Positions 34,336 through 39,483 of a stretch of 64,000 nucleotides of DNA are shown in pieces. This stretch comes from Chloroflexota bacterium (GTDB taxonomy: Bacteria > Chloroflexota > Anaerolineae > Anaerolineales > Villigracilaceae): NCBI GenBank assembly GCA_013388855.1, contig JACAEM010000025.1:62001-126000 (forward strand), written 5' to 3'. The notes under the pieces are model-generated. The model did not search any database. It had not been told where the DNA came from and was given only the letters and a program-made list of their open reading frames with translations. Position numbers and translations under genes: made by a program. Position 1 is the first letter of the stretch, and every line of letters starts with the position of its first letter.

Positions 34336-37332
34336 TTAGGGTTTACCTTCGCAAAAGACAGTTTTTGGCTCTCCGCTAAAGAAAAACGACCATTGAGTTT
34401 GGTCAAAGTTTCTGACGACTCTGGAACAGGCAGTTTGTACGAGTTGATCGGGCGCGATCTTTTGCAGGGAATCAACATCCCAGACCTGTAACACATTTGC
34501 TGATGCGGTGAGAAGCATGTTCGTGTCGCCTGAGAATGAGACACTGATCACGGCATTCGCGTGCGGGATGCGGTTCATCTCTTCCCCGGTAAGCGGATTG
34601 ACCAGATATACAGTCTGTGCCCCGCCCACTGCCAGGATATCCCCTTTGGCGTTGAACGCGAGTGAAAAAGCCGGTTCTTTGATGATTGTCTGGAGCAGGT
34701 TGTATTTGCCATCTCCATATTTCCAGATATGGAGCTGGTCCGACTCGTTGCTGGATGCCAGCAGGGATCCGTCTGCACTGAACGCGAGTACCCGGTTCTC
34801 ACCGGGCTGTTCAACCTCGCCGGCAGGGTCATGATTGGAATCAAGAATGAGCACCTTGTCTTTGATACCGACTGCGGTGAGCGACGGACCGACCGCAATG
34901 GATAGGATGCCCGAATCGTTATCAAGGATGGTATCCATAACGTTTCCTGAATTTACATCGCGGGTTTGAAGCTGCCCGACAGTATCACCCACGAGAAGTT
35001 GTGAACCGTCCGATGAAAAGGCAAGGCTTGTTATGGGAATCTCCATTGTCATGGCGATGTCAGCGCGATTATTGACATTGTACAAGATCAATTCTTTCTG
35101 GGTTGTTGAAACAGCGATCTGTGTCGAAACGGGATTGACGGCGAAATGATCGATCTTAACCCTGCGATTATCCAAATTCAACACCGGTTTGTCCTGCGAA
35201 CAGCGCGTCAGCGCGGGTAACGCGTTGGGGTTCAGAGACCAGACGCAATTTTCGTCTGAGGCGAAGATCAATCCGCCCTCCGGATCGTATTGTGCATCAC
35301 TGATGAGTCCGCTGAACAGGACGGAATCCGTGGGTACAGGCATGACAGAGATATCCCAGATACTGATTTCGCCGCTGTCATCACCTGCGACCAGGTATTT
35401 CGCCTCGCTGTCGAAGCCGAGTACCAGTCCGCTTCTCCGGAGCGGGATGCGGAACATTTCCGCGCCAGTGGCTGCGCTCCACACACGCACACTCTTATCC
35501 GCACCGGTTGTCGCAATCCACTGACCATTCGCGCTCACTTGCACATCCTGGATGGCGCTGTCCTGCAACATACGCAGTCTTTCCTCGCCGCTTGCAATGT
35601 CCCACACGCGGATGCGCTGATCATTCGAGACGGTTACGAACCATTTGTTGTCCGGGCTGAATGCCAGATCGGTCACCCAGTCTTCATTTGGGATGCGAAG
35701 CAATTGACGTTTGTTATCTGGCTCGAATACAAATGCAAGGTTATCCCTCCCGCCTGTAGCCAGGTATCGGCTATTCGGGCTGAACGACAGGGCAAGGACT
35801 TCTCCGTTGCCATGTTTTGAACTGGAGATTATCCGGTTTGAATCACTGAGACTCCACAGTGTGACGCTGCCTGTGCTGGAACCGGCGGCAAACCACTCGC
35901 CATTTGGACTGAACGTTGAAACGACCAGACTCCCGCTGGTTTGCAGAAAGCCGCTTTCCTTGCCTGTCGGCAGTTCAAACAAACTGACAAGTCCGTCGTT
36001 TCGGGCGGCAGCGGCGGATCGATTGTCCAGCTTGATGCTTACATCCAGGACCGAAACTTTGAAATCGAGCGGCTCCCTTTTGGGGTCTCCAGTGGATGCG
36101 TCCAGGATGTGAACCAGCCCCGTGTCGTCGCTGGCGACAATCAAGTTCCCGTCCGGGCTGAACGTCGCGTCTGTTGCAGACCCTCGGCTGGTCACACAGA
36201 ATAAATTATTCCCACTCTCCACCTTCCACGCGCAGATCTGGCCGTCGGCGCTGGCAGTCACGAAAGCATCGCCCGCAGTATTGAACTCCAGCGCGTTGAT
36301 CTTTCCATTCAGTGGAATTTGTTTTACCGGGATGGGAAGCAGGCTGATGTTCTTGCGCAGGATCTCCTCGGCTTCATCCGAGGGAGACTTCAGCATTGAG
36401 TCAATGGCGAGCAGGGTGCTGGTGAACAATTCGCCCGGTCTGGCTTGATAGATCTGGGCTTTTGCGGCACTGCTTTGCGCTTTGGCGATCCGTTCCTGTT
36501 CTATGGCTTTTTCCCGTTCGTCCAGCGCTTTATTACGTTCGTTATTGGCGATTCTTTGGAAGTCCCTGGCTCGTCTGGCGTTTTCATCGGCATTCTTTGC
36601 TTCCGCTTTGGCAATCTTCTCCTGATTTCTGGCGATCTTTTCAGATACCAGGGCGCGGTCGCGTTGGTCGAGGGCGTAGATTGAAAGAACTGCCATGATG
36701 AGAACGGCAACCCCGGTTGCAATCCAAGTGATGAGCCGCCGCCTTTCGTCGCGCAGACTGTGGGCTATATAGGTCTTTTGCAAGAGGGTTGGCTTGGGGT
36801 TTTTATCTGCCGCGGCCTCCACCATCTTTTGCGCGTCGCGCAAGTCCCTGCCCCGCAGGAGCAGGCTGGATTCCTTTTCGCGTTCCCATTCCAGGGCACG
36901 CACCTGCAAACGGTTATGCTCCTCCACCCAGGGGAGGTCCAATTCAATGGCGGTCTTGACCCGGAGCAAGCCTTCTTCAAAGTTGTCTGTTTCGCGTATG
37001 AATATCCAGTTCAGTTCACCGATAACAGGGTTGACCTTGGTTGTCTTGGGGTCCACGTCCCGCACGACGACCGGGATAATACGCTTGTTGTTCTTGGCGG
37101 CTTGACCGATCTCCACGTTACACACTTCGGATACGACAGAATCGGGGCTGACTAGAAAAATGAACGCATCCGAGCCTTCGATGGCGCGAAAAATCTGATC
37201 CATCCAATCCACGGCTGGGGGGATATCTTCCCAATCCACCCAGACATCCTGTTGAATCTTTTTGAAGGCTTGAATCAATTTTCGGGCGGCTCCTGAATCC
37301 TTCCGGGAATAGGAAACGAATAATTTGGCCAT
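34336..37332 (-). CDS. TIR-transmembrane-WD40 protein
   Basis: A 998-aa protein. Residues 1-130 are a TIR domain (KLFVSYSRKDSGAARKLI, then SPDSVVSEVCNVEIG); Glu74 after Cys71 is at the position of the NADase glutamate of catalytic TIRs. A single membrane helix lies at about 201-221, followed by a highly charged coiled coil with Ala/Glu/Lys repeats to about 300 and an LLAIDSML segment. From about 340 to 970 there are roughly 13-14 WD40 repeats (FSPDGNLIVASDD, VRVWSAATGAEMF). No NACHT or other STAND ATPase lies between the TIR and WD40 parts. GAGAGAGG precedes the ATG. Known TIR proteins act in NAD+ depletion defence or signalling; the role here is inferred. Confidence 0.82.
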   Translation of the reverse strand: MAKLFVSYSRKDSGAARKLIQAFKKIQQDVWVDWEDIPPAVDWMDQIFRAIEGSDAFIFLVSPDSVVSEVCNVEIGQAAKNNKRIIPVVVRDVDPKTTKVNPVIGELNWIFIRETDNFEEGLLRVKTAIELDLPWVEEHNRLQVRALEWEREKESSLLLRGRDLRDAQKMVEAAADKNPKPTLLQKTYIAHSLRDERRRLITWIATGVAVLIMAVLSIYALDQRDRALVSEKIARNQEKIAKAEAKNADENARRARDFQRIANNERNKALDEREKAIEQERIAKAQSSAAKAQIYQARPGELFTSTLLAIDSMLKSPSDEAEEILRKNISLLPIPVKQIPLNGKINALEFNTAGDAFVTASADGQICAWKVESGNNLFCVTSRGSATDATFSPDGNLIVASDDTGLVHILDASTGDPKREPLDFKVSVLDVSIKLDNRSAAAARNDGLVSLFELPTGKESGFLQTSGSLVVSTFSPNGEWFAAGSSTGSVTLWSLSDSNRIISSSKHGNGEVLALSFSPNSRYLATGGRDNLAFVFEPDNKRQLLRIPNEDWVTDLAFSPDNKWFVTVSNDQRIRVWDIASGEERLRMLQDSAIQDVQVSANGQWIATTGADKSVRVWSAATGAEMFRIPLRRSGLVLGFDSEAKYLVAGDDSGEISIWDISVMPVPTDSVLFSGLISDAQYDPEGGLIFASDENCVWSLNPNALPALTRCSQDKPVLNLDNRRVKIDHFAVNPVSTQIAVSTTQKELILYNVNNRADIAMTMEIPITSLAFSSDGSQLLVGDTVGQLQTRDVNSGNVMDTILDNDSGILSIAVGPSLTAVGIKDKVLILDSNHDPAGEVEQPGENRVLAFSADGSLLASSNESDQLHIWKYGDGKYNLLQTIIKEPAFSLAFNAKGDILAVGGAQTVYLVNPLTGEEMNRIPHANAVISVSFSGDTNMLLTASANVLQVWDVDSLQKIAPDQLVQTACSRVVRNFDQTQWSFFFSGEPKTVFCEGKP

Positions 37333-37368
37333 CGATGACCTCTCTCCATTTAGCGGAACGCAAAACGA

Positions 37369-38145
37369 TTAATACACCTGCCCAATGACTTCGCCCTCTA
37401 TTTTATCAGCCCAGGGATAGACCTCGGTCCCTTTGGCGGCTTCACGGATGGCTGGATCGTCAGAATAATGCCCTCGTTTTTCAGGCGGGAGCAATGCAGC
37501 GATCCGGCGCATGATCTCATGACCGATCTCATCGAGTTGCTCACGATGCTTTTGTCCGTGCCCATCTGTTTTGAAGGGACCGAACGGCTTGCCGATATTA
37601 ACCTGGATGCGGGCGCGTCGTCCGCGCTTGAGGCTGGGGAAAACGCCATTGAGCCCCACCAAGCCGACGGGTAGCAGCGAAGCGCCTGTCCGGGCTGCGA
37701 GAAATGCCGTTCCCGGGCGGGCAGGGCGCAAGACGGTTGCCCAATTCCCTGCTTCGGGGAAGATTCCGAGGATGCCGCCCTGTCGGAGGATCGCCTCCGC
37801 GGCTTTGAGCGAGTCTTTTGCGCCGGTACCGCGATATAGTGGATGATAGCCCCACAGCAGCGGGATGATGCGCGTGGCAAGCGGAGCATGCGGCATGTCT
37901 GCCCCGCCGACAAATTCGATCTCCCATGGAGCGACGCGCACAAAGCAAACAGGGTCGATGAAGCTGAAGTGATTCCCCACCATGATGAGCGGACCCTTTT
38001 CTGGAAGATTCTCCACGCCATTGATCTCAAGGTCGGTTAACATAGCGAACGCCGGGCGGGACAACCAGCGAAGGAATCGCCGGATGAGTCTGCGTGCCGG
38101 TGTGTGAAAACGTTGTGAAGAATGGGGCATCATTTTGACGCCCAT
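37369..38145 (-). CDS. plsC: 1-acylglycerol-3-phosphate acyltransferase-like (PlsC family)
   Basis: A 258-aa membrane-associated acyltransferase. NHFSFIDP carries the HX4D catalytic motif; LYRGTGAKDSL and GIFPEAGNW correspond to the acceptor-binding and E-G-type motifs, with PEAG instead of PEGT. It should acylate lysophosphatidate or a related lipid. The start is either the ATG at 38145 or the Met four codons later; neither has a clearly placed ribosome site. It follows the UMF1-type MFS gene by 24 nt on the same strand. Confidence 0.78.
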   Translation of the reverse strand: MGVKMMPHSSQRFHTPARRLIRRFLRWLSRPAFAMLTDLEINGVENLPEKGPLIMVGNHFSFIDPVCFVRVAPWEIEFVGGADMPHAPLATRIIPLLWGYHPLYRGTGAKDSLKAAEAILRQGGILGIFPEAGNWATVLRPARPGTAFLAARTGASLLPVGLVGLNGVFPSLKRGRRARIQVNIGKPFGPFKTDGHGQKHREQLDEIGHEIMRRIAALLPPEKRGHYSDDPAIREAAKGTEVYPWADKIEGEVIGQVY

Positions 38146-38169
38146 CTCCCGATCTGAGAGAGGTGAGAA

Positions 38170-39483
38170 TCAGTCGGTTGCGGCATATTCAAGAGCGGCT
38201 TTTCTGGCGCGCGCCTCATTGACGAACGAAAGAATGGCAAAGCCTGCAATCAAAAAAATGGCGATGGTCCCGATACTGGCGCGTTGACCGTATTGTTCGG
38301 CGAGTGTTGCTGTGACACCCTGTTGCGAGAAATACTGCGTTGCCGAATACGCGATCAAGCCGTAGACGGTCGGCCCAATGAATGAAGAGGATTTGCCTGC
38401 CACTGCGAAGAAACTGAAGAACTCGGTACTCTTGCTTTCCGGCGCGAAGAGTCCTGCCATGGTGCGACTCAAAGATTGAACGCCGGTCAATGCGAAGCCT
38501 GCCAGAGCGCCGATAAAATAATAGCCTGTCAGTGAAGGATTGAAAATCATGCCGATGACTGCCGCGATCATCAACAGGATGGACCAGTTAAGCATCCGTT
38601 TGTAACCGTATTTTTCACCCCAGATGCCAAATACATACGCGCCGAGCGCGCTGGTCAACTGTACGATAATCATGAAAACGATGAGTTGGGTCTGGTTCAT
38701 ACCGAACAGCACGCGCCCGATAATGGATGCGAATCCCAACGCCATGAGAATGCCATCATTGTAGATCAGGAATGAGACAATGAATTGAATGTATTCACGA
38801 AAATGCCGAACAGATCGGAACGTACTGGCAAGCCGCTTGAATGCGATTGAAAAATAATTCTCCCCAGCTGGCAGGAATTTGGGAGCGCGTGTCTCTTTGA
38901 CCCATAAAAACAGGGGAATGGTCGCCATTGCAAAAAAGGTCGCCGTTAATACGAACGAACCGCGCACGACCAGCATGTTGCTTTGACTGAGAACAATGGG
39001 CGGTAAAATGAATAACAGGCATACGATCCCCCCAATGGAGCCGAACGCCCAGCCATTGCCAGAGACGCGTCCCATTTCATCAGTTGTTGCCACGTCGTAC
39101 AGTAACGCGTTGTAGAAAACCTGTCCGCCGCGGTATCCGATTTCAGCCAGGACGAAGAACAACATGCCGGTGACCACATCTCCTTTTTCGACAAAGAAGA
39201 GCAAAGCGGTTGCCATCCAGGAGAGCATTGAGAAGAATAGCAGGAATTTCTTTTTTGCCACCGAATAATCCGCGATTGCCCCAAGTACCGGAGAAACAAC
39301 GGCCACTACCAGCATGGCGAGACCCATCGAAACACCCCACAGGCGGGTGCCTTCTGCTCCGCCTACCACCGTTCCCTGAAAGTATGCTGCATACACCGCC
39401 AGCAGGATCACTGCCGCATATGCTGAATTCCCAAAATCGAACCAATACCAGCCCCATTGCGCGCGTTTTTTTGTCTTTTCCAT
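38170..39483 (-). CDS. MFS protein of the UMF1/Atg22-like family
   Basis: A 437-aa transporter with about 12 helices. It starts GWYWFDFGNSAYAAVIL, the hallmark of the UMF1 (Atg22-like) family, and has PVLGAIADYSVAKKKFL as the first MFS loop. The substrate is unknown in bacteria, with amino-acid or metabolite efflux suggested for relatives. The ATG follows TAGGAGA. It heads a short operon with plsC. Confidence 0.8.
   Translation of the reverse strand: MEKTKKRAQWGWYWFDFGNSAYAAVILLAVYAAYFQGTVVGGAEGTRLWGVSMGLAMLVVAVVSPVLGAIADYSVAKKKFLLFFSMLSWMATALLFFVEKGDVVTGMLFFVLAEIGYRGGQVFYNALLYDVATTDEMGRVSGNGWAFGSIGGIVCLLFILPPIVLSQSNMLVVRGSFVLTATFFAMATIPLFLWVKETRAPKFLPAGENYFSIAFKRLASTFRSVRHFREYIQFIVSFLIYNDGILMALGFASIIGRVLFGMNQTQLIVFMIIVQLTSALGAYVFGIWGEKYGYKRMLNWSILLMIAAVIGMIFNPSLTGYYFIGALAGFALTGVQSLSRTMAGLFAPESKSTEFFSFFAVAGKSSSFIGPTVYGLIAYSATQYFSQQGVTATLAEQYGQRASIGTIAIFLIAGFAILSFVNEARARKAALEYAATD

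What the first reader, a model, noticed from the sequence alone, without database searches (positions are those of the whole stretch)
34336..37332. TIR-membrane helix-coiled coil-WD40 protein without a STAND ATPase
The N-terminal TIR keeps a Glu (residue 74) at the NADase position. It is joined by one membrane helix and a charged coiled coil to a 13-14-repeat WD40 propeller. Typical immune fusions have a NACHT or NB-ARC module between these parts. This could be a membrane-tethered sensor in which the propeller sees the ligand and the TIR consumes NAD+. The gene stands alone, with no obvious defence neighbours.
Basis: partly seen in the sequence, partly recalled or inferred. Interest (0 to 1): 0.6.

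Follow-up and report, generated by a model that had tools for sequence, protein, structure and literature searches.

The report
Bacterial Toll-like transmembrane NAD-cutting receptor
This gene most likely encodes a bacterial receptor that passes once through the membrane, with a large sensor outside the cell and a Toll-type, probably NAD-destroying domain inside, a layout that resembles animal Toll-like receptors turned end for end.

Summary
The ORF (34336-37332, minus, 998 aa) is as described: TIR with Glu74, one membrane helix, coiled coil, about 14 WD40 blades, no STAND ATPase. It belongs to a widespread family with a constant TIR, helical linker and membrane helix. The linker also lies shortly before the membrane helix of nSTAND1-type proteins, so TIR and ATPase look like alternative front ends. 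Glu74 is kept in all 156 aligned TIRs (142 distinct). Three indirect lines put the propeller outside: charge bias across the helix (119 of 124 distinct proteins), an excess of even cysteine numbers after the helix only (63 even, 9 odd, 7 zero of 79 clusters), and one member with CHASE2, an extracellular sensor domain. The stalk varies only in seven-residue steps in all 20 aligned close sequences; three of 14 further ones break the rule. A paralogue in the same genome lies in a conserved four-gene run with SLATT, predicted in print to form pores; the window gene has no such neighbours. Most likely: an N-in/C-out receptor whose ligand switches on the TIR NADase. NADase activity and an immune role are inferred, nothing was measured. 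New variant of a known kind.

The parts
34336..37332 (-). whole gene, 998 aa, TIR-linker-membrane helix-stalk-WD40-tail
36943..37332 (-). TIR domain, residues 1-130
   Evidence: Pfam TIR_2 5-122 E 3.2e-23; fold nearest to SPARTA TIR-APAZ, SARM1 TIR from rank 13; profile nearest to Cat1
37111..37113 (-). Glu74, predicted catalytic residue
   Evidence: invariant in 156 of 156 aligned TIRs, 142 of them distinct
36736..36942 (-). LINK, helical linker, residues 131-199, shared with nSTAND1 proteins shortly before their membrane helix
   Evidence: HMM built here matches 14 of 17 fetched nSTAND1 loci at 13-25 bits
36679..36735 (-). single membrane helix, residues 200-218
   Evidence: hydropathy 2.41; K/R-rich on the N side
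36430..36678 (-). coiled-coil stalk, residues 219-301, conserved Ala in heptad register
   Evidence: 20 of 20 aligned close sequences have length = 4 mod 7; 8 length changes needed on the tree; start of the stalk has low pLDDT
36334..36429 (-). neck helices, residues 302-333
   Evidence: AF2 helices 302-315 and 319-331; invariant residues
34477..36333 (-). WD40 region, about 14 blades (probably two seven-bladed propellers), residues 334-952
   Evidence: blade count is mine from the DSSP string
36232..36234 (-). Cys367, proposed cross-strand partner of Cys379
   Evidence: invariant 18 of 18; strands 365-370 and 376-381 are successive in the model; distance not measured
36196..36198 (-). Cys379
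   Evidence: as for Cys367
34339..34470 (-). C-terminal helical tail, residues 955-998
   Evidence: conserved tail motif
34426..34428 (-). Cys969 of the tail, proposed partner of Cys994
   Evidence: invariant 18 of 18; distance not measured
34351..34353 (-). Cys994
   Evidence: invariant 18 of 18

Best explanation
A single-pass membrane receptor with its N terminus inside and C terminus outside. The cytoplasmic TIR is an NADase held off by its arrangement at rest. The extracytoplasmic WD40 propellers, pinned by two conserved disulfides, bind an external or envelope ligand. Binding changes the pairing or rotation of the coiled-coil stalk, whose heptad register is kept between membrane helix and propeller, and brings the TIRs into the active assembly; NAD+ is then cleaved. 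In the paralogous operon the TIR product probably also signals to a neighbouring SLATT membrane protein; the window gene has no such partner next to it and more likely acts by NAD+ loss or by signalling to a distant gene. Shown by sequence: architecture, invariant Glu, shared linker, cysteine and charge patterns, stalk length rule in close relatives, group B operon. Inferred: topology, disulfides, NADase activity, oligomer switch, ligand, immune role.
For: Glu74 in 156/156 TIRs; the nearest folds are SPARTA and SARM1 TIRs, active NADases (recalled). Net charge before the helix exceeds that after it in 119 of 124 distinct proteins, 4 equal, 1 reversed. After the helix, cysteine numbers are even and above zero in 63 of 79 clusters, odd in 9, zero in 7; before the helix 36 of 79 are even; control ORFs without a membrane helix give 25 even, 33 odd, 1 zero (five near-duplicate loci left out). 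In 15 of 18 full-length sequences the WD40 region holds no cysteine except 367 and 379. The unit also carries CHASE2 (L239, E 2.9e-27). Stalk lengths 67, 74, 81, 88: 20 of 20 in register, 8 changes needed on a tree of 28. Group B operon with SLATT, a similar grouping in three Verrucomicrobiota loci.
Against: No activity, localisation or disulfide was measured, and no coordinates were available, so Cys-Cys distances are unverified. WD40 proteins are mostly cytosolic (recalled). Some members carry TPR repeats (L241, L211), which fit either side. SH3_3 is weak evidence for the outside: the group B partner with three SH3_3 domains shows no hydrophobic N terminus. The nSTAND1 proteins with the same linker do not show the cysteine bias (8 even, 6 odd) and show the charge bias in only 10 of 14. 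Three of 14 further sequences break the heptad rule (L125, L184, L201) and were left out of the tree; heptad-phased Ala is significant in only 77 of 136 stalks; the full-length model is poor and broken at the start of the stalk. Seven-residue steps could partly come from slippage of 21-base repeats. The window gene keeps its chromosomal surroundings in several relatives without defence neighbours, G007 and G014 carry it without any SLATT_1 gene, and the commonest neighbours of the wider family are histidine kinases and ABC transporters.
Confidence: 0.6

Rival explanations
1. The propeller faces the cytoplasm: the helix only tethers an internal sensor near the membrane, and the TIR reacts to an intracellular phage or damage signal.
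For: Most WD40 proteins are cytosolic (recalled). The SH3_3-bearing partner of group B has no visible signal peptide. TPR-bearing members exist. The nSTAND1 relatives show no cysteine bias.
Against: Charge bias in 119 of 124 distinct proteins, even-cysteine excess on the C side only, CHASE2 member. A single helix with the N side inside leaves the C side outside unless the helix is re-entrant.
Confidence: 0.22
2. The TIR is not an NADase but a scaffold or signal maker: ligand-driven TIR clustering recruits or activates a partner such as SLATT or the TPR-S protein.
For: Group B operon with SLATT and TPR-S; Kaur et al. 2020 (PMC7159879, passage) predict SLATT as a nucleotide-signal-responsive pore.
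Against: Invariant Glu; no partner found near the window gene, and two genomes have the group A gene without any SLATT_1 match.
Confidence: 0.2
3. The receptor serves envelope stress, cell-cell recognition or development, not phage immunity.
For: Group A keeps the same surroundings, near the pyruvate dehydrogenase genes in L037-L039 or the HemW gene in L036 and L040-L042, unlike a mobile defence island; group B and Nostoc-type partners carry wall-binding-type domains; the commonest neighbours of the wider family are generic.
Against: Group B partners SLATT and TPR-S are conflict-system domains (PMC7159879 passage for SLATT); 8 of 17 same-genus genomes have no match better than 1e-41.
Confidence: 0.38

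Closest known systems
nSTAND1-linker-membrane helix-WD40 proteins (PF20703)
   Same: LINK segment, then a membrane helix, with WD40 repeats in the same order in several; LINK HMM matches 14 of 17 fetched loci
   Different: They carry the STAND ATPase where this protein has its TIR, with about 3-65 residues between LINK and helix, and lack the even-cysteine bias
Caspase (EACC2) proteins with variable C-terminal regions, some extracellular with membrane helices such as CHASE2 (Kaur et al. 2021, PMC8195603, passages)
   Same: Constant cytoplasmic effector plus swappable, possibly extracellular C-terminal sensor
   Different: Effector is a caspase plus EACC2 domain in two-gene systems; no TIR version appears in the passages seen
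Animal Toll-like and IL-1 receptors
   Same: Single membrane helix joining a cytosolic TIR to an ectodomain (PMC7075850, passages)
   Different: Opposite order (TIR after the helix), LRR or Ig ectodomain; functional analogy only
Dictyostelium TirC (PMC13142454, preprint, passages)
   Same: TIR NADase tied to a predicted membrane helix; removing that helix made the protein toxic in amoeba cells
   Different: N-terminal helix only, no ectodomain; a eukaryotic protein of bacterial origin
Thoeris (ThsB, type III ThcB4)
   Same: TIR domain; NF058526 matches residues 3-96 at 41.6 bits; PADLOC ThsB models match at up to 38 bits
   Different: Far below the NCBIfam cut-off of 220 bits; no Thoeris effector among the window neighbours scanned
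TIR-NB-WD40 proteins (third architecture in the review PMC9153377, passage)
   Same: TIR at the N terminus, WD40 at the C terminus
   Different: Central nucleotide-binding domain; no membrane helix is mentioned in the passage

Membership tests
TIR NADases | TIR fold | tested here: met
   Pfam TIR_2 E 3.2e-23; Foldseek to SPARTA and SARM1 TIRs
TIR NADases | catalytic Glu after the conserved Cys | tested here: met
   Glu74 in 156 of 156; aligned with a Glu of Cat1; its catalytic role in other TIRs is recalled
TIR NADases | NAD+ cleavage | not testable with these tools
   needs an assay
STAND / NLR-like receptors | STAND ATPase between effector and sensor | tested here: not met
   only about 200 mostly helical residues, including the membrane helix, lie between TIR and WD40; none among the families shown (25 of 61)
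Thoeris | ThsA-type effector encoded nearby | tested here: not met
   no such family among the neighbouring genes scanned (nine by NCBIfam; four by Pfam)
Thoeris | ThsB/ThcB family score | tested here: not met
   NF058526 41.6 bits against a cut-off of 220
Toll-like transmembrane receptor topology | TIR inside, sensor outside | tested here: inconclusive
   indirect support only: charge, cysteine and CHASE2 evidence; no localisation
Toll-like receptors | LRR ectodomain N-terminal to the membrane helix | tested here: not met
   WD40, C-terminal
TIR + SLATT conflict systems | SLATT gene next to the TIR gene | tested here: not met
   0 of 9 group A loci including the window; L042 and L043 lack downstream sequence. 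The group B paralogues meet it in 13 of 13 loci with enough sequence

The most novel reading that the evidence does not exclude
Bacteria of several phyla possess a class of transmembrane TIR receptors with interchangeable extracytoplasmic sensor domains and a register-locked stalk, wired to NAD+ cleavage and, in some operons, to SLATT membrane effectors: an outside-sensing counterpart of internal TIR immunity, convergent with animal Toll-like receptors.
Probability: 0.5. Interest if true: 0.82.

Novelty: new variant of a known kind. Interest (0 to 1): 0.62.

Why it matters
The bacterial TIR immune proteins that I know of (recalled) are set off by signals inside the cell. A receptor that carries the signal from outside through one helix to a TIR NADase would show how a bacterium can respond before or during adsorption, would parallel the Toll-like receptor design in bacteria, and would show how TIR domains can be switched without an ATPase. 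The heptad rule, the two cysteine pairs and the group B SLATT operon make it directly testable in laboratory hosts.

Tried and rejected
Rejected: that the architecture is a one-off or a broken STAND gene (19 close relatives aligned with it, and a linker shared with nSTAND1 proteins). Rejected: Thoeris membership. Weakened: SH3_3 ectodomains as proof of an outside location, because the SH3_3-bearing group B partner shows no hydrophobic N terminus. Not done: exact Cys-Cys distances (no coordinates are returned), a PADLOC survey of neighbours, viral-contig scans, VIA-align. A promoter and terminator scan found no more than shuffles do. Literature searches: nothing; off-topic hits. Neither their listings nor the passages read show a bacterial TIR-helix-WD40 or TIR-helix-CHASE2 receptor; listings show only the best 10-20 papers, subscription journals are largely missing, and Burroughs and Aravind 2020 is not held, so absence from print is not claimed.

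Full report
OBSERVATION. The gene at 34336-37332 (minus, 998 aa) is real and as described. Residue 74 is Glu, one membrane helix lies at 200-218, and the AlphaFold2 model (pLDDT 86.5, pTM 0.71) shows TIR, a helical linker, a helix through the membrane, a coiled coil, about 14 propeller blades by my count and a helical tail; residues 222-244 have pLDDT under 50. A second model of residues 1-235 has one continuous helix 183-234 (pLDDT 88.9). No STAND ATPase fits between TIR and propeller. Genes around it: a BglX-type beta-glucosidase, an MFS-type transporter and a TetR-type regulator on one side; an acyltransferase, an Atg22-like MFS transporter, a membrane protein (PTPS_related) and HemW on the other (the first transporter and the regulator score below their family cut-offs). 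The acyltransferase gene ends 36 bases upstream on the same strand.

FAMILY. In the own genome there is one full-length paralogue (36%, G000:C29). In 61 genomes (60 relatives plus the own) the gene has two full-length groups: group A (about 44-53%; window plus eight loci, one interrupted by unread bases and one cut by a contig end; a further partial match in G004 was not fetched) and group B (31-36%; the own paralogue and ten more). 8 of 17 same-genus genomes have no match better than 1e-41. A tree of 28 sequences sets group A (11 rows) apart with support 100/100. The profile of TIR, linker and helix (A2) scores in 101 of 298 genomes of the class at E 1e-10 or better, though many of these matches cover the TIR alone.

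SHARED LINKER. An HMM of residues 131-199 matches 14 of 17 fetched nSTAND1 loci, 3-65 residues before their membrane helix, at 13-25 bits. The simplest reading is that TIR and nSTAND1 ATPase are alternative front ends on a related linker-helix-sensor unit. The rear end is swapped too; among 20 relatives scanned: WD40, WD40 plus SH3_3, SH3_3 alone, FGE-sulfatase (L147, L230), a Vps10-like region (L146, below its cut-off), CHASE2 (L239), TPR (L241, L211), and several with no named family.

TOPOLOGY. Net charge of the 15 residues before the helix exceeds that of the 15 after it in 131 of 136 proteins, or 119 of 124 distinct ones with 4 equal and 1 reversed. After the helix, cysteine numbers in 79 clusters (45% identity) are even and above zero in 63, odd in 9, zero in 7; before the helix 36 of 79 are even. 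ORFs without a membrane helix from the neighbourhoods give 25 even, 33 odd, 1 zero. In 18 full-length sequences (window included) Cys367, 379, 969 and 994 are invariant, and 15 of 18 have no other cysteine in the WD40 region. Cys367 and 379 fall in successive strands of the model at positions that would face each other in a hairpin (365-370 and 376-381). The window protein has two extra cysteines, 696 and 711. L239 joins the same unit to CHASE2, which PMC8195603 names a small-molecule receptor domain among those that might be extracellular with accompanying helices (passage). Against: clusters are not fully independent; no distance was measured; WD40 is usually cytosolic; SH3_3 is not decisive; the 14 nSTAND1 proteins with the linker give 8 even and 6 odd and a charge bias in 10 of 14.

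STALK. Between Ala220 and Leu302 lie 67, 74, 81 or 88 residues: 20 of 20 aligned sequences are 4 mod 7. Of 14 further sequences, 11 fit (three of them re-fetched copies; L154 has 109) and three distant ones do not (114, 61, 47). The tree of 28, from which those three were left out, needs 8 length changes. Over the wider set, Ala is significantly heptad-phased in 77 of 136 stalks. Slippage of 21-base repeats may help make such steps, but the lack of out-of-register changes in 20 of 20 points to selection for a register-keeping rod.

TIR. Profile search of solved structures puts Cat1 first (5e-12); Foldseek puts SPARTA TIR-APAZ first, with SARM1 from rank 13. Glu74, Cys71, Asp33, Lys83 and Pro87 are invariant in 156 of 156 TIRs, 142 distinct. 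NADase activity is inferred.

NEIGHBOURS. Group B, by BLAST with the L046 proteins, which Pfam names: a C39-like peptidase with SH3_3 domains lies upstream in 14 of 14 loci, SLATT downstream in 13 of 13 with enough sequence, a TPR-S protein after it in 12 of 13, all on one strand. None of the nine group A loci has them, though L042 and L043 lack the downstream side. SLATT_1 occurs in 16 of 61 genomes; G007 and G014 (97 and 98% complete) have group A without it. L154, outside both groups, has a SLATT-like gene beside it on the other strand. Three of four Verrucomicrobiota loci (L201, L227, L237; not L211, a short contig) have SLATT-like (DUF4231 by Pfam in L201) and TPR-S-like genes near TIR genes of the family, the latter at 25-29% identity to the Chloroflexota TPR-S protein; the TIR ORF of L227 is short and lacks the helix. 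Four Nostoc-type loci have a downstream papain-family protein, with peptidoglycan-binding domains in the one scanned. Over 101 loci the commonest neighbour clusters are histidine kinases (13 loci) and C39-ABC transporters (12), each merged by single linkage and named from one member, so no general defence enrichment is shown. Kaur et al. 2020 (PMC7159879, passages) note SLATT in systems with nucleotide-related effectors including TIR and predict it to be a signal-responsive pore.

LITERATURE. Passages of PMC7159879, PMC8195603, PMC10907252, PMC7075850, PMC9153377, PMC3710099, PMC13142454 and PMC13174449 were read, no paper as a whole. PMC9153377 names TIR-NBD-WD40 and TIR with short additions such as transmembrane regions; PMC8195603 describes caspase proteins with possibly extracellular C-terminal domains; PMC13142454 reports an amoeba TIR NADase restrained by its predicted membrane helix. 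None of the passages describes a bacterial TIR-helix-WD40 or TIR-helix-CHASE2 receptor.

VERDICT. An ATPase-free transmembrane TIR receptor, most likely sensing outside and cutting NAD+ inside. My estimates: outside topology 0.75, NADase 0.75, immune role 0.5. The topology estimate and the overall confidence were lowered slightly (0.62 to 0.60) on re-checking, because the nSTAND1 relatives do not share the cysteine bias.

Noticed in passing
G000:C29:244282-247326 (L046) and L044-L054, L116, L120, L242: Conserved gene run: C39_2-SH3_3 protein, TIR-TM-WD40, SLATT_1/DUF4231, TPR-S protein (TPR-S not seen in L049); a candidate defence operon.
   Followed up: partly
L201, L227, L237: Verrucomicrobiota loci with SLATT-like and TPR-S-like genes near TIR genes of the same family; L201 and L237 carry two TIR-TM genes each.
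   Followed up: partly
L207, L219, L236, L243: Nostoc-type TIR-TM-WD40 genes have a downstream papain-family protein (peptidoglycan-binding domains in L243, the one scanned); the Chloroflexota group B counterpart is a C39-like peptidase with SH3_3 domains. A cysteine-peptidase-type partner in both.
   Followed up: partly
L188, L230, L201, L237, L185, L202: Two or three genes of this TIR family in tandem, with rear parts of different length or kind.
   Followed up: no
L188:5250-6668, L189, L190, L191: TIR-linker proteins with about 190 residues between two membrane helices; no Pfam family for that stretch in the two scanned (L188, L190).
   Followed up: no
L156-L166, L168, L169, L172 (nSTAND1 loci): nSTAND1 proteins with the same linker have net positive charge before their membrane helix in 14 of 14, more than after it in 10 of 14; L156 and L169 have the same tail cysteine pair, but overall cysteine parity is 8 even, 6 odd. 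Their topology is open.
   Followed up: partly
window 34336-39483: Acyltransferase and Atg22-like MFS genes precede the TIR gene on the same strand, as in L037.
   Followed up: partly
L122, L126, L225: A protein cluster recurs beside TIR-TM genes in three loci; the L225 member has a RyR domain.
   Followed up: no
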